DNA of 64,000 nt, taken from positions 62,001 through 126,000 of IMG/VR virus record IMGVR_UViG_3300042731_011014. One strand, 5' to 3'. The DNA comes from a virus. Positions 1 through 22,190 of the stretch are shown in pieces (position 1 is the stretch's first letter; each line of letters begins with the position of its first letter). The notes beneath the pieces were generated by a model. The model searched no databases. It was not told where the DNA came from and worked only from the letters and a program-made list of their open reading frames with translations. The translations under genes and the position numbers were made by a program.

Positions 1-821
1 TTTGGCCATAAAATATTAACTTCCTTATTATGACACCTAACCGAACTTGATATATCCATAGATTGTAATAGCAATTGAACATTATTAAGCATTTCCTTGC
101 ATGTAGATACAAGCCTAATAGCCTCATTTGAATCGCAACATACATTCCCATTGGCACCAAAAAGGCCTCTTAAAAACGAACATTGTGCATTATGCGTAAG
201 ACCAAAAAGAAAATTTGGTAAATCCCTGTCTGGTAGTGCAGACATATCCATACCAATTTCTTCTAACCAGTGAAAAAAATAACTACTAGAAAATACATAA
301 CACCTTTTATTTAGATTATAAGACGGATCCGTTTTATTAATATCAGAAAAAATAGGCAATACTGTATTCTCGATAAATTCAGTGTCCTTTCCTTTGGTAA
401 AATAAAGAGATACGACACGGCTACTCTTATTGTATCCACCATCCCCTTGGAGAAAACCCAAAGACTCCATTAATATTTTTGAAGCATAAGAATAGTACTT
501 TCCAGTCTTTCCAGTTATACATTTTGGAATTTTATTCGCCAGATCACTCCCAGCATTACCCTGTAATACGCATGGAATAATAAGTCCCCTTGACTCAACC
601 GCTGGAACAAACCCTATTTCAGTTAGTATCCTATGATCACCGGTTAACCTTATTTCATGACCTCTATTGGTTTTTATCTTAACAATATCTTTTACCCCCG
701 TCTTCCAAACTTCACCTTTTACATATCCAAATCCATCAAATATTCCAACGGATTTTCCATCAAGATCTTCTACTTTTTTCCACCCAGAAGATGTTAATAA
801 TCTGGTACCCCTACTAATACA
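1..821 (-). other. Intein 3 in NrdJ (LAGLIDADG type, partial)
   Basis: In-frame insertion after the extein motif SSNP. It begins with the nucleophile Cys (residue 1039) followed by ISRGTRLLTSSGW, a typical N-terminal splicing block. Block B is visible as GHEIRLTGDHRILT. Two LAGLIDADG-like helices follow: SLGFLQGDGGYN near residue 1158 and FLRGLFGANGNV near residue 1254, so it carries a homing endonuclease of the dodecapeptide class. The C-terminal splice block lies outside the window. The NPC Cys of class II reductases is the thiyl-radical residue, so the expected +1 extein residue beyond the edge is the catalytic Cys. Confidence 0.9.
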
Positions 822-3800
822 TGGATTACTAGAGTTAATTCTACCCTCTGATGGCACTGTATTCCAACTATTTATGGTAGTATCAAATTGGATCCCAGGA
901 TCACCGCAAACATGTGCAGCCTCAGCAATAGCCGTAAAAACATCTCTAGCCTTAACCCTATCAATAGCTTTACCGTCAGTTACAGCTATCAAATCATAGA
1001 AGTCATCGTTTTCATATGCTCCCATAAACTCATCAGTTACCCTAACACTATTATTGGCATTCTGATAACATACCGTATTGTAAGCATCGCCATTTATAGA
1101 TCCATCATAACCAGCATCTATTAGAGCCCATGCCTTTTTTTCCTCTTTAACTTTACAATTAATAAAGTCCATTATATCTGGGTGATTTACGTTTAATATT
1201 GCGATCTTAGCAGCCCTGCGCGTATTAAAAACAGCAATACCTGATCCGGATTTTCTACCATCACTCCATATTACAAAATTATGACCACTATTTTCTGTTT
1301 TATCATCATTTGTCTCACAAAAAACCTCAACATCGTATGAATCGTGAATACCGATGCTTTCCACCCTCAACACTCTGTGATTATCCTCCTTAACCTCTTT
1401 TAGAAAACTTTCATACCCACCAAAATTGTTTTCTATTGACTCTAGTATTTTTTTCGCAGACGAGAAATTACCAATAATTTTTTTTCTATTTTCACAATAA
1501 AGATCAAATGTATCAATACATCCACCATTATTGATAATCCTGTAAGCTAAATTCTTCATCCTTTTTCTAACAGAAAGCTTTTGCAATTCAGATGGATTTC
1601 TTTTTTTCATACCATCCCTTTGCTTTTTTCTATACTCCTCAACCTTCTCAGAATTCTTCCAAAAAACAGAATCAGCATGCATTCCATTTAGTTTTTCAGA
1701 TCTTGAAAATTTTCTTTTCGAAAAAACATGACTCCCTTTTTCAAATAACTCTTTTCCATGAATCGAAGCATGTTCTGATTGAGGCATAATTTTTAAATTA
1801 GAAATATCGTTGTTCATCCTGTCCCCATCAATATGATGAACAATATCGCCATTTTTACACTGTAAAATATCCTCTGCGACTAACCTATGGAGGTGATTTT
1901 TCCCTTTGAGACCATCTCTTAGATTAACTCTTAAATATCCACTATTTTCTGATATCACACAAGAAAACAAGGACATGCCTTCTCTAAGGTTTCCAGCATT
2001 TACTGTATTCCCATCAGCCATTCTAATTGGATGATCATACGAGACCTCGAAAAAGCCTTTATCTGTAGTAATCCTAATCATCTCTTTTGGACTAGACTTC
2101 CATGCTTGAGCTTTTTTTGCTACATATCTATTCCTAGGGGGATCAAATGATAAGCATATAAACTCATCCAATTTCGCTAACTCTTCAACTCGAACTGGTC
2201 CATTGTTCGTATAGATTCTCTGCCATGGTATTAAACACTTACCTCCACTACGAATTACTCCAGCCCACGAATCATATCCACGCATAAAAGACACTGGTCC
2301 ACTAGCATACCCGCCACCTCTAACATGCTCCTTTGTGCTACGAAGCGTTGAAAAATTCGTGCCTGTTCCAGATCCATGCTTAAAAAGCATACCTTCAGTT
2401 TTAACAAGATCAAGGATTGAATCCATATCATCCTCAACCTCATTGATAAAACAATTATGAGTAACATACCCTTCATAAAGAAACTCTTCGTTTGAAGATT
2501 GTATATCAAAAACCTCTTCGGGCTCATCAAGCATTTTTATTGATTTTATCTTCACCCTATGCAAATCATGCTTTTGCTTTCCTTTTCTCGAAAAAGTTCC
2601 AAACAGCGCTTCATTTTTATCCTTAGCTAAAAAACCAATCCTCTCCCGGAAAATCTCCCTTTCACTCTCATATGATATATCGACACACCATGAGTCAAAT
2701 CTATCTTCTCTCTTATCCTTTTTTTCACCGTATCTAGAGAAAATACCAACACTTTGCAGTAACAATTGCACCCCATCAATAAAATCCCTGGGCATTCTAC
2801 TTAATCCCACAGAGTGTCTTTCTTTAGTAATATATCCATTGCACTGAAAAACACTTTTCAAATAAGATATTCTTGCTCTTATATTAGCCCCTTTAATTCT
2901 CTTGGGAACTCTAGCTTCCTTTTTTCTATACATAAGTTCATATTTTTCAATAAAGTCCCTAAATATCCTTCCATAAGATCTAAATCTAATAAAATCAATA
3001 TTAGGATCTTCTGTTTCCTCGGGAATCTCATTAAACTTAACATTTGGAAAAACTACATCTAAATGTTCTCTAATCCAGGATCTTTCATATTCATTAATTG
3101 TTTCAAATTCAACTATATAAGAATTACACTCATATTTTCCAATAAAACCATTACAAACAAGCCATCCAGCTAATGCAGCCTCACTTTCGCAAATCTGATC
3201 CCCTTGTTCAATTACCGTCCTTTGCCTCCATAAATAATCCCCAATATTTAACTCATCAACTCTTTTCCATTTACCATTACCTTTATGATGATGCGCAGAA
3301 AAAAACCTATGATCTGTAGTTGCGTACAATCTAGAACCATTAACAAGTTCTATTTCAATGACTTCCCTGAAACCGTTATTCTTCTTCGCCTCAAGACTCG
3401 CAACACCTTCCTTTGTTATCAACCCTATCTTAATCCCGTAACCATCTTCCAGCTTGTTATTAATAATATCCCTCATGGTCATCATTCCAAAATCGGTCAT
3501 AACAGTTGCATAACCAGGTAGGCATGCTGAACATTGCGGATTATCCTCAACACCCACGTTAAACCAAACAGGGCTATTAAACGCTGCATATTGTTTAATT
3601 AAGATGTACCTCAATTCGTCAAGAAAATTAGCTGCGTCATCATTATCAAAATATTCCTGCTCAATACCCCAATTTGTTATTGTCTTAGCCACCCGCTCAA
3701 CAAGGCTTATTACACTGTTTTCCCTTTCTAAGCTTCCTAGCTTTCCCCTAAAATACTTCTGAGCTACAATATTAAGCGCTGTCTGTGACCAATCTTTGGG

Positions 3801-3935
3801 CACTTCAACATTTTTTTGGCTAAAGAAGACTTCACCTTTTTCATTCGTAATTACAGCATCCCTTCTTTCGACCTCAATACCCATGTATGAATCACGAATT
3901 TTAATATCAGATGTTAGTATCCTATCTATTTTCAT
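1..3935 (-). CDS. nrdJ: Class II (B12-dependent) ribonucleotide reductase with three inteins, 3' end outside window
   Basis: Reduces ribonucleotides to deoxyribonucleotides using adenosylcobalamin; in a phage it supplies DNA precursors. I translated the frame from ATG at 3935 (preceded by AAAGGGA) to the window edge: 1311 codons without a stop. The extein pieces match the NrdJ family: FNSPVWFNVG and NPQCSA (ending at residue 137), CFINEVEDDM plus FKHGSGTGTNFS and GGGYASGPVSF (residues 495-566), TRRAAKIAILNVNHPDIM and DPGIQFDTTIN (905-1038), ending at SSNP. Inteins occupy residues 138-494, 567-904 and 1039 onward. The C-terminal half of the enzyme, the end of intein 3 and the stop lie beyond position 1. 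Family identity is near certain; catalytic competence depends on splicing of all three inteins. Confidence 0.95.
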   Translation of the reverse strand, partial: MKIDRILTSDIKIRDSYMGIEVERRDAVITNEKGEVFFSQKNVEVPKDWSQTALNIVAQKYFRGKLGSLERENSVISLVERVAKTITNWGIEQEYFDNDDAANFLDELRYILIKQYAAFNSPVWFNVGVEDNPQCSACLPGYATVMTDFGMMTMRDIINNKLEDGYGIKIGLITKEGVASLEAKKNNGFREVIEIELVNGSRLYATTDHRFFSAHHHKGNGKWKRVDELNIGDYLWRQRTVIEQGDQICESEAALAGWLVCNGFIGKYECNSYIVEFETINEYERSWIREHLDVVFPNVKFNEIPEETEDPNIDFIRFRSYGRIFRDFIEKYELMYRKKEARVPKRIKGANIRARISYLKSVFQCNGYITKERHSVGLSRMPRDFIDGVQLLLQSVGIFSRYGEKKDKREDRFDSWCVDISYESEREIFRERIGFLAKDKNEALFGTFSRKGKQKHDLHRVKIKSIKMLDEPEEVFDIQSSNEEFLYEGYVTHNCFINEVEDDMDSILDLVKTEGMLFKHGSGTGTNFSTLRSTKEHVRGGGYASGPVSFMRGYDSWAGVIRSGGKCLIPWQRIYTNNGPVRVEELAKLDEFICLSFDPPRNRYVAKKAQAWKSSPKEMIRITTDKGFFEVSYDHPIRMADGNTVNAGNLREGMSLFSCVISENSGYLRVNLRDGLKGKNHLHRLVAEDILQCKNGDIVHHIDGDRMNNDISNLKIMPQSEHASIHGKELFEKGSHVFSKRKFSRSEKLNGMHADSVFWKNSEKVEEYRKKQRDGMKKRNPSELQKLSVRKRMKNLAYRIINNGGCIDTFDLYCENRKKIIGNFSSAKKILESIENNFGGYESFLKEVKEDNHRVLRVESIGIHDSYDVEVFCETNDDKTENSGHNFVIWSDGRKSGSGIAVFNTRRAAKIAILNVNHPDIMDFINCKVKEEKKAWALIDAGYDGSINGDAYNTVCYQNANNSVRVTDEFMGAYENDDFYDLIAVTDGKAIDRVKARDVFTAIAEAAHVCGDPGIQFDTTINSWNTVPSEGRINSSNPCISRGTRLLTSSGWKKVEDLDGKSVGIFDGFGYVKGEVWKTGVKDIVKIKTNRGHEIRLTGDHRILTEIGFVPAVESRGLIIPCVLQGNAGSDLANKIPKCITGKTGKYYSYASKILMESLGFLQGDGGYNKSSRVVSLYFTKGKDTEFIENTVLPIFSDINKTDPSYNLNKRCYVFSSSYFFHWLEEIGMDMSALPDRDLPNFLFGLTHNAQCSFLRGLFGANGNVCCDSNEAIRLVSTCKEMLNNVQLLLQSMDISSSVRCHNKEVNILWP
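1224..2237 (-). other. Intein 2 in NrdJ (HNH type)
   Basis: A 338-aa in-frame insertion between SGGK and TRRAAK, a stretch that is contiguous in ordinary NrdJ. It starts with Cys (CLIPWQRIYTNNG), has block B as FFEVSYDHPIRMAD, and carries an HNH endonuclease signature VHHIDGDRMNNDISNL at residues 699-714 followed by a lysine/arginine-rich segment. The C-terminal blocks are YDVEVF...GHNFVIW and SGIAVFN, then Thr as the first extein residue. The penultimate residue is Phe, where most inteins have His. The boundaries are set by extein conservation on both sides. Confidence 0.9.
2454..3524 (-). other. Intein 1 in NrdJ (LAGLIDADG type)
   Basis: A 357-aa in-frame insertion between NPQCSA and CFINEVED. 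It starts with Cys (CLPGYATVMTDFG), has block B as GSRLYATTDHRF, two LAGLIDADG-like helices (LAGWLVCNGFIG near residue 255; YLKSVFQCNGYI near 358), and ends with EEVFDIQSSNEEF and a canonical His-Asn before the extein Cys. All splice residues look intact. The +1 Cys aligns with the N-terminal redox-active Cys of the reductase active site (established for the family), so removal of the intein must be precise for activity. Confidence 0.92.
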
Positions 3936-4273: not shown

Positions 4274-4597
4274 CTACCCCCTCCATGTTTCGGTATTTAT
4301 ATATTCCATCGGCACATACTTCACTAACCAAACACCGTTCTCAGATAAATAAAAATCATGACCATCTCTACTCATATCATTTGCGCGAATTACAAGAACA
4401 ATAGGAACACCATGCCTTGAACCAATATCCATAGCTATTTCACCATCAGCAGATAAATGAACATATTGCCTATTTCCAGGCTTGATGCCACCTTCCATTA
4501 TCGATCTTACAGATGTAACAGCGGTCCCGTGATAAAGCAATTGTGGTGGCATAATAGGTTTTAGATCTAAATCAACATTTACGGGATCATATCTCAT
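4274..4597 (-). CDS. KptA/Tpt1-like ADP-ribosyltransferase-fold protein, NAD lobe only
   Basis: Resembles the C-terminal lobe of RNA 2'-phosphotransferases (KptA/Tpt1), which move a 2'-phosphate from RNA to NAD+. The signature runs in order: LLYHGT (residues 20-25), RQYVHLS (43-49), IGSRHGVPIVLVI (58-70), HDFYLSENGVWL and VPMEYI near the C-terminus. I chose ATG at 4597 because TGAGGAAAAAA precedes it; a longer GTG start at 4654 has no such site. At 107 aa it is little more than half the usual length of about 180 aa, and the N-terminal RNA-binding lobe is absent. It may therefore modify something other than 2'-phosphorylated RNA. Confidence 0.85.
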   Translation of the reverse strand: MRYDPVNVDLDLKPIMPPQLLYHGTAVTSVRSIMEGGIKPGNRQYVHLSADGEIAMDIGSRHGVPIVLVIRANDMSRDGHDFYLSENGVWLVKYVPMEYINTETWRG

Positions 4598-4621
4598 TTT
4601 TTTCCTCAAAATAATACACAA

Positions 4622-4640
4622 AGGGTCGCTTAGCGTCCCT
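4622..4640. other. Leader hairpin before the KptA-like gene
   Basis: On the minus strand AGGGaCGCTaAGCGaCCCT folds into a stem with arms GGG/CCC and CGCT/AGCG. It lies between the putative promoter (4676-4703) and the ATG at 4597. The T-rich stretch after it (TTTGTGTATTATTTT) is interrupted, so it could be a weak terminator or attenuator, or simply leader structure. Confidence 0.35.
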
Positions 4641-4675
4641 CCGCACGAAAACACCTACATATCATCTTAATAAAA

Positions 4676-6777: not shown

Positions 6778-7515
6778 CTATTTATTCTTCGGTTTTGTCG
6801 CCAAAAAATCAATCATTGTTTTTCCGCCAGTACGCTTCAAAGTATCAATAATATTCTTGCCAATCTTGTTTTTAACCGGCTTACTGGCCCATTTTACAGC
6901 CCTTGCTCTAAGTTTAGAACCAAGTTGGGTAATTTCCTTCTTTGAAAGCTTTTTATTATTATCGACAATAATAAAATTACTCCCACCAAAAAGAGTTTGA
7001 AATTTCCCCATATTATTTTGAACTTGGTTCCAGCTTTTTATTACTACATCCTTTGGTACACTTCTTTTTCTTTTCTCATTCCTTTCATGAGCAACGTCTA
7101 ATGATGTATTCACAAAAACCATAGCAGTATCATAACCAAAACCTTCGAGTCTTTTCCTTGCTTTCGATATTTCATCGTAATCCTTGCCAGTCCCATCAAC
7201 AACTATCCCAAGCATTCCACCTAACCAATATCCTTCCCGTTTTTTAGTAATCTTTTTTGCATAATCCCTTGCTACCATCTGTTTTTTATACATTAATGGC
7301 TTTTTTGGATCTATATCAAAAGATAAACCTCTCCCTCCTAAAAGAACTTCGAATGCAAGATCTGTATTTAAAAACTTCAATCCAGCCCCAGCGAACATAT
7401 GGTTAGCTATAAAGCTTTTTCCGCTCCCTGGGCCACCAGCAAGAAAAACAGCTTTAAAAATATAAGGATCATTAATCCCCTCTGCAATCATTCTAAGTTC
7501 TTCAAGTAAATCCAT
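6778..7515 (-). CDS. P-loop kinase, zeta-toxin/AAA_33-like
   Basis: A 245-aa protein with a Walker A motif GGPGSGKS at residues 27-34 preceded by FKAVFLA, and a downstream strand GIVVDGTGKDYDEI that fits a substrate-binding or Walker B region. Basic residues HERNEKRKRSVP follow as a probable lid. This is the layout of small phage kinases related to zeta toxins and polynucleotide kinases, which phosphorylate nucleotides, nucleic acids or sugars; the substrate cannot be read from sequence. Homologues are common in large myophages close to structural genes. The 3' end abuts the broken nuclease-like gene, suggesting one accessory unit. Confidence 0.8.
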   Translation of the reverse strand: MDLLEELRMIAEGINDPYIFKAVFLAGGPGSGKSFIANHMFAGAGLKFLNTDLAFEVLLGGRGLSFDIDPKKPLMYKKQMVARDYAKKITKKREGYWLGGMLGIVVDGTGKDYDEISKARKRLEGFGYDTAMVFVNTSLDVAHERNEKRKRSVPKDVVIKSWNQVQNNMGKFQTLFGGSNFIIVDNNKKLSKKEITQLGSKLRARAVKWASKPVKNKIGKNIIDTLKRTGGKTMIDFLATKPKNK

Positions 7516-7530
7516 TTTTATATTCTCCTA

Positions 7531-9903
7531 TTAAGGTTCAAGTACCATTCTAAAAGTTTTCATTCGATTAATACCTTCCCAGATTGTTTCCATCGTATAA
7601 GTAGCCACAAGACCCGTAATCTCGGCCCCACCATCCGTTGCAGCCTCAGCATTGGCCTTACTGTCAAACACCCTCACACGCGCTGTAATGAGCTGAGAGT
7701 CCGCATCATGCGAGGTGTTATCAATATAAGCATTCTCGTGATTAAGGCCCAGGAGGCGGGCTATAGCCGTCAAATCAGGCATTTTATTCGCTATATCATG
7801 AAGTGAGTCTTGAGATGAATCAAAATCACCATCGCCCCCATCTTTAATAAGCTCAATATTATCGCCTATATTAGTAACATTCGTATTGATCATGTCACCT
7901 GTGGCAGCAATATCATGAAGTGAATCCGTTGTGTTACTAAAATCACCATCACCGCCATCCATTATCCTATTCGCTTTAGTGTTAATCTCAGCCGCATGCC
8001 TGGATTGATCATGGAGCGAATCTTCTGTAGCCAAAAAATCACCATCCCCACCATCCTTAATCAATTCCAAATCAACCTGGTTCGCGGCCACACTTTCACT
8101 GATCTTTTTCAGCGAATCATCATCAGTATTAAAACCAACACCCTTAATCTCCTCTAAATCAGTTCCAATATTACCCAAATCATTATCAATACTATTAAAA
8201 TTAAACTCATTCGCTAAACGCTGGTCGTGTAACGAGTCAAGAGTATTAGAAAAATCTCCTGTACCGCCGTCCTTAATAAGTCCCAAATCAGTAATAATAC
8301 TTATATTATCTCCTTGTAAGTCATGTAAACTATCCTTCGACGGATCAAAATCACCATCCCCGCCATCCTTGATTAATTGGATCTGCGGATTTAAATCTTT
8401 TGTGAAAAGTTTTATATCATGAAGGCTATCCTCACCAGGCACAAAATCACCATGACCTCCGTCTTTAACTAACTGAATTTCAGTATTTAAACTCTCATAA
8501 TGGAGTGTTTGATCTCTAAGACTATCCTCACCAGGTACAAAATCACCATCGCCGCCATCTTTGATTAATTCCAAATCCACCACAATACTATCCACATCAA
8601 CCTCTACCGCATTTTGCTGCTCCCTTAAATCATGAAGCGAATCAGTACTAGAATTAAAATCGCCGTCTCCGCCATCTTTTATTAATTCGAGATCTACTTG
8701 ATTGGCAGCTACCGCATTACTCAGGGCATTATCAGCAATTGTTCTATCATGCAATGAATCCTGTGTAGGACTAAAATCACCATGACCCCCATCTTTGATC
8801 ATCTCAAGCTGATCTCTTAAATCATGAAGTGAATCCTTATCTACATCAAAATCACCGTGACCGCCATCAAGTGCAGAATCAACTTTTCCAGAAATATTAT
8901 CCCCTCTAATACTCTGATCATGCAGAGAATCGCTACTAGGGTTAAAATCCCCGTCTCCCCCATCCTTGATAAGAGATAGCTCTGTTTCAATAGCCGCAAA
9001 CTTACCTTGAATGTCGTGAAGTGAATCCGTAGTTGGAACAAAATCACCGTCGCCTCCATCCTTAACAAACTGAATCTCTTCTTCTATCGCTTTCAGTGAA
9101 TGATCAGCGGTAAATGTTCCCGTATTACCATCCTTAACCCATTGAATTTGAGTATTATTTCTATCACTATGTCTAGTTTGATCATGTAAACTGTCTTCGG
9201 ATGGATCGAAGTCACCATGACCGCCATCCTTAATTAATTCAAGGTCCACCTGATTTGCTGCAATAACAGACGTATGATCATGAAGTGAATCAGTATTTGG
9301 ATTGAAGTCACCATGACCGCCATCCTTAACCAGTTGGATTTGATTATTTAAATTATTATAATTACTTACCTGAGAAGCTTGAATCGCTGCAAACTGAGCA
9401 GCATGATCATGTAATGAGTCTTGAGATGGATTAAAGTCGCCATCCCCGCCATCTTTGATAAGCTCGACATCTGTTTTTATCGTTGAAATTTTCTCATCAA
9501 TGTTATCTGTGAACCCCCCAACATGAATCTCGCCATATTGAGGGGTGTTTTCTGCATCAGTTTTCGGATCCTGCACAATTATAAATTGGTAAACATCAAA
9601 CCCATTGATAGGATTAGTTATTTTCGATGTGTCAAACCCGCGCTGATGAGATGGTTCATTTAACTGATACTCTCCAGGTGCATTGGTCGAATCAACCTCA
9701 TTCATACTTTCTAATAATTGAACCACACTGCCAACCGACTTAAAGGTTTCATCACTCCAATCATAAAAATCCCCATTAGAAGATCGCCAAACCTTAATCT
9801 TGATATCAGTTTTTAACGCTAACGGATCACCATTATCATCTAATATTGTCGCAATAACTGGTTCCTTATCGCCATTCTGAATTCTCACTGAAGAATAATT
9901 CAT
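7531..9903 (-). CDS. Repeat-rich tail fibre protein, 790 aa
   Basis: Residues 1-130 form an all-beta N-terminal domain of the type found in baseplate upper proteins (EPVIATILDDNGDPL, VWRSSNGDFYDW, GEYQLNEPSH). Residues 146-703 hold 17 repeats with consensus LIKDGGDGDFxPxxDSLHD, each followed by a variable helical segment of 10-20 residues. Repeats 4 and 14 are degenerate. The C-terminal 87 residues (LTAIARLLGLNHENAYID...MKTFRMVLEP) form a separate beta domain. I infer a long trimeric shaft with alternating beta turns and coiled coil and a C-terminal tip. Same strand and spacing as its neighbours. Confidence 0.8.
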   Translation of the reverse strand: MNYSSVRIQNGDKEPVIATILDDNGDPLALKTDIKIKVWRSSNGDFYDWSDETFKSVGSVVQLLESMNEVDSTNAPGEYQLNEPSHQRGFDTSKITNPINGFDVYQFIIVQDPKTDAENTPQYGEIHVGGFTDNIDEKISTIKTDVELIKDGGDGDFNPSQDSLHDHAAQFAAIQASQVSNYNNLNNQIQLVKDGGHGDFNPNTDSLHDHTSVIAANQVDLELIKDGGHGDFDPSEDSLHDQTRHSDRNNTQIQWVKDGNTGTFTADHSLKAIEEEIQFVKDGGDGDFVPTTDSLHDIQGKFAAIETELSLIKDGGDGDFNPSSDSLHDQSIRGDNISGKVDSALDGGHGDFDVDKDSLHDLRDQLEMIKDGGHGDFSPTQDSLHDRTIADNALSNAVAANQVDLELIKDGGDGDFNSSTDSLHDLREQQNAVEVDVDSIVVDLELIKDGGDGDFVPGEDSLRDQTLHYESLNTEIQLVKDGGHGDFVPGEDSLHDIKLFTKDLNPQIQLIKDGGDGDFDPSKDSLHDLQGDNISIITDLGLIKDGGTGDFSNTLDSLHDQRLANEFNFNSIDNDLGNIGTDLEEIKGVGFNTDDDSLKKISESVAANQVDLELIKDGGDGDFLATEDSLHDQSRHAAEINTKANRIMDGGDGDFSNTTDSLHDIAATGDMINTNVTNIGDNIELIKDGGDGDFDSSQDSLHDIANKMPDLTAIARLLGLNHENAYIDNTSHDADSQLITARVRVFDSKANAEAATDGGAEITGLVATYTMETIWEGINRMKTFRMVLEP
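7795..9468 (-). repeat. 17 in-frame repeats of about 90-130 nt encoding DGGxGDF...DSLHD
   Basis: The DNA repeats encode the shaft of the fibre. The best conserved nucleotides cover the codons for K-D-G-G-D/H-G-D-F and D-S-L-H-D (on the plus strand seen as recurrent aaatcaccatc.ccgccatc and tcatgaagtgaatc). Spacers vary in length and sequence, and codon use varies between copies, so the array has aged and is not a recent expansion. Such an array can change copy number by recombination. Confidence 0.85.
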
Positions 9904-9910
9904 TTTTACA

Positions 9911-10372
9911 TTAACCCTGCGAGCTACCGGTTACTCTTAAGTTATTCTTAAGCATTATCCCTTTAATATTACTATTCATATCTGATACAACATCAATCAT
10001 TTTGTTAATACTTTTTCTTAGCTCATTTTGACTGTCATGCATTTTAATCAATAAGTTATTTAAATCACCAACACCATTACTTAACGTCTTCAAGGAATCA
10101 TCCATCGACCTCCTAACATACCATACCGGCACGCCATCCTCATCCCTTACATTATGCATTTCTAATAATTTTTCCGATTCCTTAGCAACTCTCTTTAAAA
10201 GAGCATCTGTCTCAGAAATATTTTTTTCAACCTTTATATAACACCTATCAGGTTGTTTACCTGCCGTTGCAGCTTTTGGAATAAACCTATTAGCTAATAT
10301 CTTTAAAACTTCAATTATTCCAAGCGACATTGCTACCACAACTCCAAGCAATGTTAAATCTACTGTTTCCAT
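9911..10372 (-). CDS. Membrane-anchored coiled-coil protein
   Basis: I place the start at ATG 10372, preceded by TTGAGG; an in-frame TTG at 10384 is less likely. The protein (153 aa) has one N-terminal hydrophobic segment (LTLLGVVVAMSLGIIEVLKIL), then a mostly helical region with DEDGVPVWYVRRSMDDSLKTL and long charged heptads. This architecture is common in phage proteins near lysis genes, but holin or spanin function is not shown. It follows the patatin-like gene directly (TGATTGAGG), so the two are translationally linked and may act together at the membrane. Confidence 0.7.
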   Translation of the reverse strand: METVDLTLLGVVVAMSLGIIEVLKILANRFIPKAATAGKQPDRCYIKVEKNISETDALLKRVAKESEKLLEMHNVRDEDGVPVWYVRRSMDDSLKTLSNGVGDLNNLLIKMHDSQNELRKSINKMIDVVSDMNSNIKGIMLKNNLRVTGSSQG

Positions 10373-10384
10373 TTTATACCTCAA

Positions 10385-11200
10385 TCAAGAAAACACTTCT
10401 TTTGCCCTATCATAACCAATTTTCATCATTGCTCGCATTTCCTCGGGAACAAACTTAAGAGAATTCTTTGTTAATTCCTTTTCCGGCTCAATAATAATTA
10501 GATCAATATCATCACACATTACTGAATCAATATCGTTATTTCTTATTTCTGTAACCATTAAATCAAGAGATCTAAATAATGTGCTTGGAATTCTATTATA
10601 TTTTTCCTTATTTCTCGTGACCGTAGGTGGTGATAGTTTAATTGCGAAAATTCGCTTTGCTCCACAATCTATAGCCGCCTGAATTGGCACAACTTCTCGT
10701 ATGCCACCATCTAAATGATAATCACCACCCTCAAAGATCTGCACAGGTGGCATAAAACCAGGTTCATTACTACTTGCTAAAAGCGCTCTTCGAAATTCAT
10801 TAACACACATCATCTTCGGCGACCAATAACATATACTTCCAGAATTTAAATTCACTGTGCAAACATAAACACCCTTACTACTTTGTCTCAACTTATAAAA
10901 AATAAACGGTGTCAAGTTAGTATTAATAATATTTTTTAATCCACTATCATTATATAAAGAAGCTCGCCAAGGAAGTGTTAAACAACAATTTTTTCTCAAA
11001 AGATCTTTTGTTCTAACATTAGAATAAATTTTTTTTACTATATGAAAATCACCGCTGGCAACCAATGGAACAATTAATGCTCCTGTGCTTGTTCCAATTA
11101 AAATATCAAATGATTCACCTTTCTCTAACAACCACTCAATTGCCCCAATAGCAAAAGCCCCCTTACACCCGCCACCACTTATTACTAGTGCTGTTTTCAT
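10385..11200 (-). CDS. Patatin-like phospholipase
   Basis: A 271-aa member of the patatin family, Ser-Asp dyad acyl hydrolases that cut membrane phospholipids. The oxyanion motif is GGGCKG (residues 9-14), the nucleophile elbow GTSTG has Ser38, and the catalytic Asp164 is in HLDGGIREVVP. All expected residues are present and the length fits the minimal patatin domain. There is no signal peptide. Its start overlaps the stop of a fibre gene (ATGA at 11200-11197) and the next gene is a membrane-anchored coiled-coil protein. It could aid lysis, act during entry as a virion enzyme, or serve as a host-directed effector. Confidence 0.9.
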   Translation of the reverse strand: MKTALVISGGGCKGAFAIGAIEWLLEKGESFDILIGTSTGALIVPLVASGDFHIVKKIYSNVRTKDLLRKNCCLTLPWRASLYNDSGLKNIINTNLTPFIFYKLRQSSKGVYVCTVNLNSGSICYWSPKMMCVNEFRRALLASSNEPGFMPPVQIFEGGDYHLDGGIREVVPIQAAIDCGAKRIFAIKLSPPTVTRNKEKYNRIPSTLFRSLDLMVTEIRNNDIDSVMCDDIDLIIIEPEKELTKNSLKFVPEEMRAMMKIGYDRAKEVFS

Positions 11201-12228
11201 ACGATCACCTGAATATTATTTGGTCTATACAACTGGAACCAAAAAGATACTTCCCCGCCCAACGGACTTTTTTTTCTAACCGTAAGAACAGTTTTCCAAT
11301 TTTGATGAATCCACTCCGTTTTTGAAACATCTACATCAAAAACACCCATAGGATTACCAAGAAAAATATTACTAAACGTTTTTATTTGAAAAGTTAAATC
11401 CATTAAATGATAATTCCCAGACGGAATTGGAGTTGATTCCTCCCATGTACACGCTGGTATAATAATACCTGTATCAAAATCCACATCCCAAAAACCAGTG
11501 CCAATCTGTTCAACAGGAGCACAATTTGCTAGTTTCAATTTTTTATCAGCAACTGGCGCTGACGCAGGAATAAAAATATTATTAGATGTATCATGATAAA
11601 CATCTGTCTCACCACTTACATCATGTACATTCGCCGGTATCTCAAAATGCAACCACCACCTATCCTCAGATGGTTTCCAATTTTCTACAGGAGTATTAAT
11701 TAATCTCCCATCTTTTATTGCAACAGGGGTATTAAACTGAACATCAACACTCTTGATTGTTCCATTAGCTGTATTCACCTCAGATTTATCGAACTCCACA
11801 ATAATAAAATCCCCCTCTCCTAGTCCAAGATTTGGAGGAGTTGGACTCATATCATCTGACGCGCCAGTAACATAAAGCATCCAACCCTGTGGCATAGGAG
11901 CATTTACAACATTAATACGGGAGTCTTTTTCTTGAGGAGTATCAATCCTAACCTTCAAAAAATCATCATCAGTTATCGGCAACCGCTGTACAAAATTAAA
12001 AACATGGGCAAGCGCTTCCTGAAGTGTTAAATCTCTCGATCCATCATTTACTGTTAACGATAAATCAGGATTTACTAAATCAGCTAATAACTGCTCAGAA
12101 TAGGCAATTTTTAGCCGAGACAAATGCACTTCTAAATCAAGATCATCGTTTGCTGGTATAGAAACCGCTGGAACTGTGTCCTGTAACTTCCAAATAGTAT
12201 CACCATTATTTTTTATAATTGTTGGCAT
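11197..12228 (-). CDS. Fibre-associated structural protein, 343 aa
   Basis: An all-beta acidic protein without enzymatic motifs. The opening TIIKNNGDTIWKLQDTVPAV and the segment LEVHLSRLKIAYSEQLLADL resemble the start of the next upstream fibre (NKTGSIINLQKIVAPDMELPDG), so both probably attach through the same kind of N-terminal domain. The C-terminal half contains long Trp-rich beta strands (DRWWLHFEIPANVHD, EVSFWFQLYRPNN). It overlaps the patatin-like gene by 4 nt. I infer a fibre tip or accessory subunit. Confidence 0.6.
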   Translation of the reverse strand: MPTIIKNNGDTIWKLQDTVPAVSIPANDDLDLEVHLSRLKIAYSEQLLADLVNPDLSLTVNDGSRDLTLQEALAHVFNFVQRLPITDDDFLKVRIDTPQEKDSRINVVNAPMPQGWMLYVTGASDDMSPTPPNLGLGEGDFIIVEFDKSEVNTANGTIKSVDVQFNTPVAIKDGRLINTPVENWKPSEDRWWLHFEIPANVHDVSGETDVYHDTSNNIFIPASAPVADKKLKLANCAPVEQIGTGFWDVDFDTGIIIPACTWEESTPIPSGNYHLMDLTFQIKTFSNIFLGNPMGVFDVDVSKTEWIHQNWKTVLTVRKKSPLGGEVSFWFQLYRPNNIQVIV

Positions 12229-14589
12229 CTATGACTCCCTATTTCCCTTAAATCTCACCCAATCAATGATCAAATTCCTAGCAGAAGATCCTTGATTTTC
12301 ATGATAAACATGACCTTGTAACAAATAAGTTGGAATATTGGTCAAATGAGTATTTTTAAGAACATCATCAATATAAAATTTCACAGTTGATCCATCAGTA
12401 GAAATAATTCTGAATTTATGCCAATTTGTATCTTGGGCTGTACCAGTATCAAGGTCAGTAATCGATCCACCAACTCTAGTTCTACTAAACCAATTGCCGG
12501 TTCCATCAAGAAAGAAAAAACATTCCGCTGTACCCGCGTTGTTCTGGCCACCTAACTCTATCCAATGAGCAGAAGTTTCCAGCATCCTTGCTCTATATGT
12601 TAAGTCTATACATCCGGGAACAGAAAAAAAGGCAAAATTTGAACTTATATAATTAGTTCCAGAGACCGGCCCAACTATTAATTGCAACTGACCAGCCAAC
12701 CCATCCACAACAGCAATAGATGATCCTGCGCCACTAACTTCTGTATACCAAAGATCTGTATTTAAATGAGCAAAATCATCAAACATATCTAAACCAGATT
12801 CTGGATCATATCCCCCCGGTATATTTAACCTCGCTCGACCTCCTCCAACATCAGTAAATGTTACACCATCACCAACAACATCAAGAATTGAATGAGGTGT
12901 ACTGGCTAACGTAACAGTATCTCGCTCCATTGTTATATTGGAACCAGATCCAGTATCACCCTTTGGCCCTTGCGCCCCCGTTTGACCCCGAATCCTCATT
13001 ATCGTAAGACCTGAGCCACCAGCCCTAAGATTAATCGTACTTGTGCCAAGTGTCCGCCTGGCTTGTATTTTAATTTTGTCTCCCCACCCAACTGAAACAA
13101 CAGCAAACGCTATCGCCTGACCGCCATAATTCAATTGACGAGCATACGAGGGCGATACCATTCCGGCAATTTCCGTATAACCAGATCCGGTATCAATAGA
13201 CATGCGCATTTCTGCTTCAGATCTGCTTGATCCAGAAATCACATTCACTGCCACTCTAGCAAAAATAGCCACTGTATCAGTAGCCTCAAAGGTTACCTCA
13301 GCAGAGGAGCCTGTATGCTCAAACATTGCATCTTTTTTGCGCTCTGTATCTAACGGAACATCGGTCCATCCAGAACTAATATCTGTTCCTCCAGCCGCAT
13401 CATAGGCATCAAAATATTCGGTCGCCTCACTAATACCCTGAAAAGTTATCTCCTTCCAAACAGCATTACTTGTTGAAGCATCAACACATATAAACGCCTT
13501 ATCCGTTGTATTGTTATGCCAAATTGAATTTATTGAATACCCGTCTACGTCGTCATCACCAGCGCCCGGATCCGTAGTAGCTCCAACATTGTTCTTTGTG
13601 TTCGAAACATTTTCCAAACCAACGTGACTCGCGGGCTGAGTTACAGTTGTGTGATCGTCTAATGTATCCCCATCATCACTAACATCCCGGCCATCTACGG
13701 TCCCAGAAGTTGCTATGTTCCCTAAATCATCTATTGTCACAGCCGAATTCTGAATTATTTTACCGGCCGCGCCATCAAACCTAGCAATTGCATTATCAGT
13801 CGAGCTTCCTGGCCCAGAAACATCCCCTGTCCCAGCACCACCAGAAGGATATTCTATCCAAGTTGAGCCATCATATACCCAATGAGAGCTATCATCCGTT
13901 TGTTTGGCCTCATCGCCCTCTTGGACGGTTAGGGCGAGTCTTTCTGTTGAATCAGCTACAATATGAACTTCTGGCAAGGCAACCGAAGGTATCTTTGAAG
14001 CCGGAACCTTCCCACCTGCATCAAGATCACAAACACCGTTTACTGCACCCTTCTCACTCGAAGGGATCGCCCCAATATTCGCTGGATCTAAATTTGGATG
14101 TGGATCCGCGCTATTTTCATGAGTACTGAAATCCGAAATTGTTACAGCACCAACCTGGGCGGCTGTAACATCATGGGGATTAGAAGTACTATTAGCATGA
14201 ATATTATGTACCGATTGACCAACAAGAGGATTTCCACTATCTATTACACCAGCCCCATCTAAGGCATCTTTTTGGTCGCTCGTAGGATCGTTTGAATTAT
14301 CGTGATGATCAGTTGCGCTAACATCCTCTAATTGATCGTGTGAAATCTGAGTTATTACAGGAGGGGTTGAAGCATCTATTGCCTCCTGATTACTGAGTAG
14401 TTCCCCATTAATTCTAACTTCAATATCATCCGCATTAACTAAGGTAATATATTCAGAATTAAATGGGATTTTCTCTTCATCGTTCCATAGAGAAACATCC
14501 ACCCATACACCGTCCGGCAACTCCATATCCGGAGCAACAATTTTCTGGAGATTTATGATAGAGCCCGTTTTGTTGCGTACTTCAAACAT
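12229..14589 (-). CDS. Modular tail fibre with C-terminal lectin-like domain, 786 aa
   Basis: N-terminal attachment domain (residues 1-80), then SHDQLEDVSATDHHDN, NPHDVTAAQVGA and SADPHPNLDPANIGA units typical of phage fibre shafts. A module SSTDNAIARFDGAAGKIIQN is shared with the next gene. A short collagen-like GAQGPKGDTG precedes the last domain. The C-terminal 190 residues (DMFDDFAHLNTDLWYTEV ... HKFRIISTDGSTVKFYIDD ... DWVRFKGNRES) form a concanavalin/LamG-like beta sandwich, closely similar to the end of the 335-aa protein at 16872-17879. Probable receptor-binding fibre. Confidence 0.8.
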   Translation of the reverse strand: MFEVRNKTGSIINLQKIVAPDMELPDGVWVDVSLWNDEEKIPFNSEYITLVNADDIEVRINGELLSNQEAIDASTPPVITQISHDQLEDVSATDHHDNSNDPTSDQKDALDGAGVIDSGNPLVGQSVHNIHANSTSNPHDVTAAQVGAVTISDFSTHENSADPHPNLDPANIGAIPSSEKGAVNGVCDLDAGGKVPASKIPSVALPEVHIVADSTERLALTVQEGDEAKQTDDSSHWVYDGSTWIEYPSGGAGTGDVSGPGSSTDNAIARFDGAAGKIIQNSAVTIDDLGNIATSGTVDGRDVSDDGDTLDDHTTVTQPASHVGLENVSNTKNNVGATTDPGAGDDDVDGYSINSIWHNNTTDKAFICVDASTSNAVWKEITFQGISEATEYFDAYDAAGGTDISSGWTDVPLDTERKKDAMFEHTGSSAEVTFEATDTVAIFARVAVNVISGSSRSEAEMRMSIDTGSGYTEIAGMVSPSYARQLNYGGQAIAFAVVSVGWGDKIKIQARRTLGTSTINLRAGGSGLTIMRIRGQTGAQGPKGDTGSGSNITMERDTVTLASTPHSILDVVGDGVTFTDVGGGRARLNIPGGYDPESGLDMFDDFAHLNTDLWYTEVSGAGSSIAVVDGLAGQLQLIVGPVSGTNYISSNFAFFSVPGCIDLTYRARMLETSAHWIELGGQNNAGTAECFFFLDGTGNWFSRTRVGGSITDLDTGTAQDTNWHKFRIISTDGSTVKFYIDDVLKNTHLTNIPTYLLQGHVYHENQGSSARNLIIDWVRFKGNRES

Positions 14590-21383: not shown

Positions 21384-21724
21384 GCGGCGGAAACCCCTGA
21401 TTTCAATCAGGGGAGAAGCCGCCTAACAATTAACCACCAAATTATGCATACGAATAACATTGGGAGTTACCTCCCAATTCTCTGCTTTCGCAGGTAAAGG
21501 TCACCTCGGCAAAGTTAATGCACGGTTTTATATGCAAACAGCACTGGCTTAACCCCTTAGACCTGTTTAACCACTTGCCGTAGAGCCTGGGGCTGGTGAA
21601 GCACCCCAGGGTACCTATATATTCGTGCTTAACGTAGCTCAAGAAGTATTGCTCCTTTGCTTAGCCTGGTTAACATAAGGCCTGTAATCTCTCACAAGCC
21701 CTCGACTTCAGTCGAAGGTAGTTG
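21384..21724 (+). mobile_element. Relic resembling the RNA-coding 3' end of an IS200/IS605 (tnpB) element
   Basis: A 340-nt stretch without a convincing gene, richer in G and C than its surroundings and dense in perfect hairpins: outer GGCGG/CCGCC with inner CCCCTGAT/ATCAGGGG (21384-21423), ATTGGGAG-TTAC-CTCCCAAT, CTGC-TTTC-GCAG, CCTGGGG/CCCCAGG, and TCGACT-TC-AGTCGA (21702-21715) followed by GGTAGTTGAC. The last hairpin plus tail looks like the right end of IS200/IS605 elements, where the omega-RNA of TnpB lies; the first hairpin has a similar look. No tnpB reading frame survives. It reaches into the last codons of the gene ending at 21708. Confidence 0.45.
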
Positions 21725-22190
21725 ACGACTTAACCGGATTCGGTTTTACTAGTTTTGTTATCTCATGTATAGCAAGAGACATTGGCCCAGATAACGCTAA
21801 AATTAAGGCCTCCCACCACTCCTTTCCGGCTCCAATCGTAAGAACAATAAATAATCCACCTCCTAGAACTAAAGTTGCAATCCGAATGTAATTTTTTCCT
21901 TTTTCCTTGAACCATGTGCTTGCCATTTTTAATAAAGAAATTAATAACTTGAAAATTGCCGCGAGCAACGCCATCCACGCTACTAACTCACCTGCATGCT
22001 CCCCTGATTTTAAATCCTTTACTGTCTTCACCAATTTTCCAACATCACCAATAACACCTGAAACATCACCATCACTATTAACTGCATTATCTACAATATC
22101 AGCCGGATCCGTTGATGCATCATTGGCATATGCCATATTTAGCATAATTATTGAAAACATTAAAATTAACACAAAAATTGCTTTAATCAT
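21708..22190 (-). CDS. Membrane protein with signal peptide, holin-like layout
   Basis: 160 aa: N-terminal signal sequence (FVLILMFSIIMLNMAYA, likely cleaved before NDAST), an acidic linker, then two or three membrane segments (AWMALLAAIFKLLISLLKM; IATLVLGGGLFIVLTIGAG; possibly ALILALSGPMSLAI). Multiple membrane passes and small size fit a holin or related lysis protein, but no family motif proves it. The last six codons (SSTTFD and stop) are encoded within the hairpin end of the adjacent relic, so the original C-terminus may have been replaced. Confidence 0.65.
   Translation of the reverse strand: MIKAIFVLILMFSIIMLNMAYANDASTDPADIVDNAVNSDGDVSGVIGDVGKLVKTVKDLKSGEHAGELVAWMALLAAIFKLLISLLKMASTWFKEKGKNYIRIATLVLGGGLFIVLTIGAGKEWWEALILALSGPMSLAIHEITKLVKPNPVKSSTTFD

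What the first reader, a model, noticed from the sequence alone, without database searches (positions are those of the whole stretch)
1..3935. Class II ribonucleotide reductase carrying three inteins in one phage gene
I translated the minus strand base by base from 3935 to the edge. The extein blocks of NrdJ are contiguous only if three in-frame segments starting with Cys are removed. Three inteins of two endonuclease types (LAGLIDADG, HNH, LAGLIDADG) in one phage reductase is unusual, and means functional enzyme needs three protein-splicing events. Reductase genes are known intein hotspots; this particular combination is what deserves attention.
Basis: partly seen in the sequence, partly recalled or inferred. 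Interest (0 to 1): 0.88.

Follow-up and report, generated by a model that had tools for sequence, protein, structure and literature searches.

The report
Phage reductase with three inteins
A phage gene for a B12-dependent DNA-building-block enzyme is interrupted by three self-excising protein inserts (inteins), two of them placed exactly at the enzyme's catalytic cysteines, and the same 178-kb phage carries eight more in four other genes, more than in any other phage found here.

Summary
Confirmed and extended. The minus-strand frame from 3935 is a complete 1931-aa ORF once read past the window edge. Removing three inteins (357, 338, 365 aa) leaves an 871-aa class II reductase (NrdJ) that aligns without scars to intein-free NrdJ. 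Inteins 1 and 3 lie directly before the residues aligned with Thermotoga NrdJ C134 and C322, so catalytic cysteines double as splicing nucleophiles. Endonuclease types are as read (LAGLIDADG, HNH, LAGLIDADG), but intein 1 has Asn for both catalytic acids and intein 3 for one; only the HNH motif looks intact.

The larger fact lies outside the given coordinates: the record holds 11 inteins (6.8% of 177,890 bp) in five genes, four of them in the portal gene. Among 82 other virus records scanned the highest count was 7 intein hits (in 484 kb), against 12 here. Three inteins match inteins at the same site in other genomes best, which points to homing. No group I/II intron and no intein-independent LAGLIDADG, HNH_3 or GIY-YIG nuclease was found. 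Several inteins in one reductase is a known kind (Trichodesmium has four); the genome-wide load is the unusual part. Splicing itself is inferred, not shown.

The parts
1..3935 (-). nrdJ precursor ORF (class II ribonucleotide reductase with three inteins); continues past position 1, whole ORF genome C1:60140-65935, 1931 aa
3525..3935 (-). extein 1 (137 aa), ends PQCSA
2454..3524 (-). intein 1 (357 aa): Cys1, block B TTDH, C-terminal THN, +1 Cys; LAGLIDADG domain
3147..3173 (-). intein 1 LAGLIDADG motif P1 LAGWLVCNG: Asn at the catalytic position (Asp in the same-site archaeal allele)
2835..2861 (-). intein 1 LAGLIDADG motif P2 LKSVFQCNG: Asn at the catalytic position (Glu in the same-site archaeal allele)
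2238..2453 (-). extein 2 (72 aa), begins with the Cys aligned to T. maritima NrdJ Cys134, ends SGGK
1224..2237 (-). intein 2 (338 aa): Cys1, block B SYDH, C-terminal VFN (Phe in place of penultimate His), +1 Thr; HNH endonuclease domain
1767..1892 (-). HNH_3 match inside intein 2
   Evidence: genome 63767-63892
822..1223 (-). extein 3 (134 aa), TRRAAK...NSSNP
1..821 (-). intein 3 (365 aa; its last 274 bases lie beyond the window): Cys1, block B TGDH, C-terminal VHN, +1 Cys aligned to T. maritima NrdJ Cys322; LAGLIDADG domain
438..464 (-). intein 3 LAGLIDADG motif P1 SLGFLQGDG (Asp kept)
147..173 (-). intein 3 LAGLIDADG motif P2 LRGLFGANG (Asn in place of Asp)

Best explanation
The gene encodes a class II (adenosylcobalamin-dependent) ribonucleotide reductase carrying three cis-splicing inteins of the standard (class 1) type. 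After translation each intein should cut itself out and join its flanks (attack by Cys1, transfer to the +1 Cys/Thr/Cys, Asn cyclisation), giving an 871-aa enzyme. Inteins 1 and 3 use as +1 nucleophile the enzyme's own catalytic cysteines, so the unspliced precursor should be inactive and only a precise loss of the intein DNA is tolerated. The inteins are mobile elements acquired by homing into conserved codons; two of the three now have damaged LAGLIDADG active sites and are probably kept because imprecise removal destroys the enzyme. The phage genome is intein-rich: 11 in five genes (nrdJ 3, portal 4, UvsW-like helicase 2, primase 1, DnaB-like helicase 1), most likely gathered by the same route. 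Shown: ORF, junctions, domains, scarless exteins, same-site alleles in other genomes, nuclease residues. Inferred: splicing, present mobility, inactivity of the precursors.
For: ORF and junctions; intein domains over curated cut-offs; scarless extein against four other phage NrdJ and solved NrdJ; Hint fold for intein 2 and I-DmoI/TliVMA-like fold for intein 1 (models of low to medium confidence). Genome-wide set and no twelfth intein. Homing: intein 1's best match is the intein at the identical NrdJ site in an archaeal MAG (35% over 368 aa); portal-i1 and portal-i2 match inteins at the same (or adjacent) codon in other phages (46% over 334 aa, 43% over 426 aa) better than any intein in their own genome. 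Sites 1 and 3 are also occupied in the reductase of huge phage LR756511, site 3 in Moorella phage MTATph1 and Bacteroides phage DAC23. Empty sites: 80 viral NrdJ and portals of two relatives.
Against: No expression or peptide data. Intein 2 has Phe instead of the penultimate His and two short insertions near blocks F and G, so its splicing is the least certain, and no allele at its own site was found. Intein 3's best match is not its own-site allele. No close relative of this phage was found, so gains and losses in its own lineage cannot be dated. The parent record is a metagenomic assembly and may be incomplete.
Confidence: 0.9

Rival explanations
1. One or more inteins no longer splice (intein 2 first), so the gene is decaying or gives fragments, and the phage relies on the host reductase.
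For: Intein 2 ends VFN rather than VHN and carries extra residues around blocks F and G; portal-i3 ends KN; several nucleases are damaged.
Against: The 1931-aa frame has no stop or frameshift and the catalytic extein residues are kept. Every intein keeps Cys1/Ser1, terminal Asn and a +1 Cys/Ser/Thr. The other eight inteins also sit in open frames, several in genes a phage cannot do without. Inteins without the penultimate His that still splice are known (own knowledge).
Confidence: 0.06
2. The inteins have become regulators: splicing of RNR, helicases, primase and portal is held back until a redox, metal or timing cue, coordinating replication and packaging.
For: Inserts sit at active-site residues (Cys134/Cys322 equivalents, Walker A K|T, SATP), and conditional splicing is described for the Mycobacterium DnaB and Pyrococcus RadA inteins (abstracts of PMC6195587 and PMC5790916). 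Four of seven LAGLIDADG domains have lost a catalytic acid.
Against: Active-site insertion is explained by selection against imprecise loss alone. Same-site alleles in unrelated genomes point to mobility. Three LAGLIDADG and two or three HNH domains look intact.
Confidence: 0.08
3. The multi-intein genes are an assembly chimera or artefact.
For: The record is a metagenomic assembly, and no close relative was found to check it against.
Against: Eleven in-frame insertions at conserved codons in five separate genes, intein G+C near that of the exteins, and related portals with inteins at the same sites on independent contigs.
Confidence: 0.02

Closest known systems
Trichodesmium erythraeum ribonucleotide reductase with four inteins (Liu 2003, cited in PMC1635734 and PMC4649490)
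   Same: Several inteins in one reductase gene
   Different: Bacterial chromosome, with three group II introns in the same gene; here a phage, no intron found, and four other genes also carry inteins
Reductases of huge phage LR756511 (two inteins), Moorella phage MTATph1 and Bacteroides phage DAC23 (one each)
   Same: Inteins before the same catalytic cysteines (sites 1 and 3)
   Different: More distant reductases, fewer inteins, none at the GGK|T site; the inteins themselves are only weakly similar where compared
Zeta crAss-like phages (PMC7886860)
   Same: Phage genomes heavily loaded with self-splicing elements
   Different: [quoted passage not shown] here 11 inteins and no detected group I/II intron
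Mycobacteriophage inteins (PMC5050341)
   Same: Inteins in portal, primase and helicase genes of phages
   Different: 229 inteins over 161 intein-bearing genomes (about 1.4 each) against 11 in one genome here
Huge phage LR756508 portal (three inteins)
   Same: Several inteins in a T4-like portal, one at the same site as portal-i2
   Different: Three against four inteins in the portal; 7 Pfam intein hits in 484 kb against 12 in 178 kb here

Membership tests
Class II ribonucleotide reductase (NrdJ) | NrdJ barrel, class II N-terminal and TSCPD domains in one chain | tested here: met
   PF02867, PF08471, PF12637; PRK06556 equivalog 1180 bits against cut-off 859, TIGR02504 over cut-off
Class II ribonucleotide reductase (NrdJ) | Active-site cysteines (T. 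maritima C134, C322, C333) present in the spliced protein | tested here: met
   Extein Cys aligned with positions 134 and 322 of 1xje and with the following ACNL cysteine; catalytic roles from own knowledge
Class II ribonucleotide reductase (NrdJ) | Adenosylcobalamin-dependent activity | not testable with these tools
   needs an enzyme assay
Inteins, standard (class 1) type | Cys/Ser at position 1, Asn at the end, Cys/Ser/Thr at +1 | tested here: met
   all three NrdJ inteins and the other eight
Inteins, standard (class 1) type | Block B TxxH and penultimate His | tested here: inconclusive
   met in inteins 1 and 3; intein 2 has SYDH and Phe in place of the penultimate His
Inteins, standard (class 1) type | Hint splicing domain | tested here: met
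   TIGR01445 over its cut-off for all three; Foldseek of intein 2 finds inteins first, top E 4e-4, from a model of low confidence
Inteins, standard (class 1) type | Protein splicing | not testable with these tools
   needs expression or proteomics; the scarless extein is indirect
Active LAGLIDADG homing endonuclease (inteins 1 and 3) | Acidic residue in both LAGLIDADG motifs | tested here: not met
   intein 1 Asn/Asn, same-site allele Asp/Glu; intein 3 Asp/Asn. The fold is LAGLIDADG
HNH homing endonuclease (intein 2) | HNH motif residues | tested here: met
   PF13392 over cut-off; motif aligned with portal-i1 and with solved HNH homing endonuclease 1u3e

The most novel reading that the evidence does not exclude
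In this phage protein splicing acts as a shared post-translational gate: RNR, primase, two helicases and the portal stay inactive until 11 splicing reactions run, and these reactions, several of which use catalytic cysteines, respond to a common cue such as redox state, so that replication and packaging are switched on together.
Probability: 0.08. Interest if true: 0.88.

Novelty: new variant of a known kind. Interest (0 to 1): 0.64.

Why it matters
Phages are under pressure to keep genomes compact, yet here 6.8% of a 178-kb genome is inteins and 70% of the portal precursor must be removed before a capsid can form. It is a natural test case for how many inteins a virus tolerates, whether they compete or cooperate in homing, and whether phages carry inteins between bacteria and archaea. 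Shared insertion sites across phages, an archaeal MAG and different reductase classes make the reductase's catalytic cysteines an informative homing target. It also adds 11 natural inteins, including ones with a non-His penultimate residue, for splicing work.

Tried and rejected
Searching viral contigs with the single extein or the terminase found no relative; an alignment query was needed. Expected a twelfth intein elsewhere in the record: a scan with profiles from the eleven found none above noise (the last 890 bases of the record were covered only). Considered copying of inteins within the genome: not supported where a close same-site allele exists; portal-i3 and portal-i4 (47% over 125 aa) are a possible exception. 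Considered introns or free-standing homing endonucleases as part of the load: none by Rfam, PF13392, PF14528, PF01541. The structure of intein 2 was of low confidence and is weak support only. A sequence search of intein 1 against the PDB found nothing, while the fold search did. Considered calling intein 1 an active homing endonuclease: rejected on residues.

Full report
Observation. The minus-strand frame beginning at window 3935 is open to the window edge. The window is bases 62001-126000 of a 177,890-base virus record; reading on gives a complete ORF of 1931 aa. Cutting at PQCSA|C...HN|CFIN, SGGK|C...FN|TRRAA and SSNP|C...HN|CGEY leaves 871 aa. This matches class II reductases: NCBIfam PRK06556 at 1180 bits and TIGR02504 over cut-off, solved NrdJ 7b9q at E 3e-167. 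Against NrdJ of phage LR745208, Geobacillus virus E3, Bradyrhizobium phage BDU-MI-1 and the Moorella phage the three junctions fall without scar in conserved sequence.

Where the inteins sit. The 72-aa extein piece after intein 1 aligns from residue 134 of T. maritima NrdJ and the last piece from residue 322. From established knowledge of that enzyme, Cys134 is one of the redox pair and Cys322 the thiyl-radical cysteine. The +1 splicing nucleophiles of inteins 1 and 3 are therefore the catalytic cysteines themselves. Intein 2 lies in SGGK|TRRAAK, just after the residue aligned near position 206 of the same structure.

Anatomy. Intein N-terminal domains score over the curated cut-off for all three. 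Inteins 1 and 3 have TxxH in block B and end in HN; intein 2 has SYDH and ends VFN, with extra residues around blocks F and G relative to related portal inteins. The intein 1 model (mean pLDDT 55, mostly 70-87 in the nuclease) finds I-DmoI and the TliVMA intein; the low-confidence intein 2 model finds Hint domains first. Nuclease residues: intein 1 LAGWLVCNG and LKSVFQCNG against LAGWLQADG and LKSLFQSEG in the same-site archaeal intein; intein 3 QGDG and GANG; the HNH of intein 2 is intact in alignment.

The genome. Two intein profiles hit nine to twelve places in the record. Reading those frames gives, beyond nrdJ: a T4-like portal (PF07230) of 1906 aa with four inteins and a 563-aa extein, next to a 677-aa protein resembling phage large terminases; a UvsW-like helicase with one intein in Walker A and one in SATP; a Toprim primase with one; a DnaB-like helicase with one in Walker A. 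That is eleven inteins, 12,021 bases, 6.8% of the record. A scan with profiles built from these found no other. All LAGLIDADG_3 and HNH_3 hits lie inside inteins, GIY-YIG is absent, and Rfam finds no group I or II intron. Of seven LAGLIDADG domains three keep both acids (UvsW-i1, primase, DnaB); portal-i1 and nrdJ-i2 keep an HNH, portal-i3 a divergent one; portal-i4 has none left.

How unusual. Of 82 other virus records chosen for a related NrdJ or portal, 30 have any Pfam intein hit; the highest counts are 7 (484 kb), 6 (126 kb) and 5; this record has 12. Hits are not inteins one to one, many records are fragments, and the sample is not random. Literature: crAss-like zeta phages, whose density was called unprecedented, have up to three inteins per genome (PMC7886860); 161 intein-bearing mycobacteriophages share 229 (PMC5050341); the Trichodesmium reductase has four, and the archaeon Methanococcus jannaschii 19 per genome (PMC1635734). 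I found no report of a phage with more, in a library that lacks most subscription papers.

How they arrived. Intein 1's best match is the intein at the identical site in an archaeal MAG (35% over 368 aa); portal-i1 matches inteins at the same or adjacent codon on four other contigs; portal-i2 matches a same-site intein (43% over 426 aa). Matches within the genome are weak except portal-i3 with portal-i4. This is what site-specific homing between genomes leaves. For intein 2 no same-site allele was found, and intein 3 matches its same-site alleles only weakly. Eighty viral NrdJ show no intein, though the ranking of that search favours uninterrupted genes; one of 80 cellular NrdJ does. Sites 1 and 3 recur in the reductase of phage LR756511, site 3 in two further phages. 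Portal relatives often carry inteins, as do neighbouring frames, so the phage belongs to an intein-rich group and is the extreme among those seen.

Mechanism and limits. Standard three-step splicing would release each intein; the spliced reductase keeps its catalytic residues. Damaged nucleases in two of three reductase inteins suggest late stages of the homing cycle, held by the harm of imprecise loss. Splicing, nuclease activity and any regulatory role are untested.

Noticed in passing
L021:4255-9975 minus (genome C1:148255-153975): T4-like portal gene with four inteins (1906-aa precursor, 563-aa extein), all with +1 Ser; portal-i3 ends KN and portal-i4 has lost its nuclease.
   Followed up: yes
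L020:2214-6026, 8645-10807, 11018-13561 minus: UvsW-like helicase with two inteins (one starting with Ser), primase and DnaB-like helicase with one each; three of these insertions are in Walker A or SATP motifs.
   Followed up: yes
window 21494-21726 minus; L025 about 6900-7350 (genome about 132 kb): HEARO (omega RNA of IscB/IsrB, Rfam E 7e-29) standing alone among tail genes with no nuclease ORF beside it; a second place has matching sequence plus a broken IscB N-terminus (RRXRR E 1e-7 with a stop). Looks like two decayed IscB elements.
   Followed up: partly
window 4274-4654 minus: Tpt1/KptA RNA 2'-phosphotransferase domain (E 1.5e-18) two ORFs upstream of nrdJ; a P-loop kinase/zeta-toxin-like protein lies at 6778-7515.
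   Followed up: no
window 7531-9903 minus: 790-aa protein built of more than a dozen copies of a repeat like ELIKDGGDGDFxPxxDSLHD.
   Followed up: no
L031 2707-6867 (LR756508) and L312 (LR756511): Unannotated huge-phage genomes: a portal with three inteins, and a reductase with two inteins at the same catalytic-cysteine sites as here.
   Followed up: partly
L226 2030-5548 (Bacteroides phage DAC23): Reductase annotated as hypothetical protein, with an intein-like insert before the NPC cysteine that ends in Gln (SQ|CAE) rather than Asn.
   Followed up: partly
L250, L251, L252, L271, L296, L298 and other portal relatives: The portal or frames next to it carry one to several inteins; about eight distinct insertion sites are seen in the portal across these phages.
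   Followed up: partly
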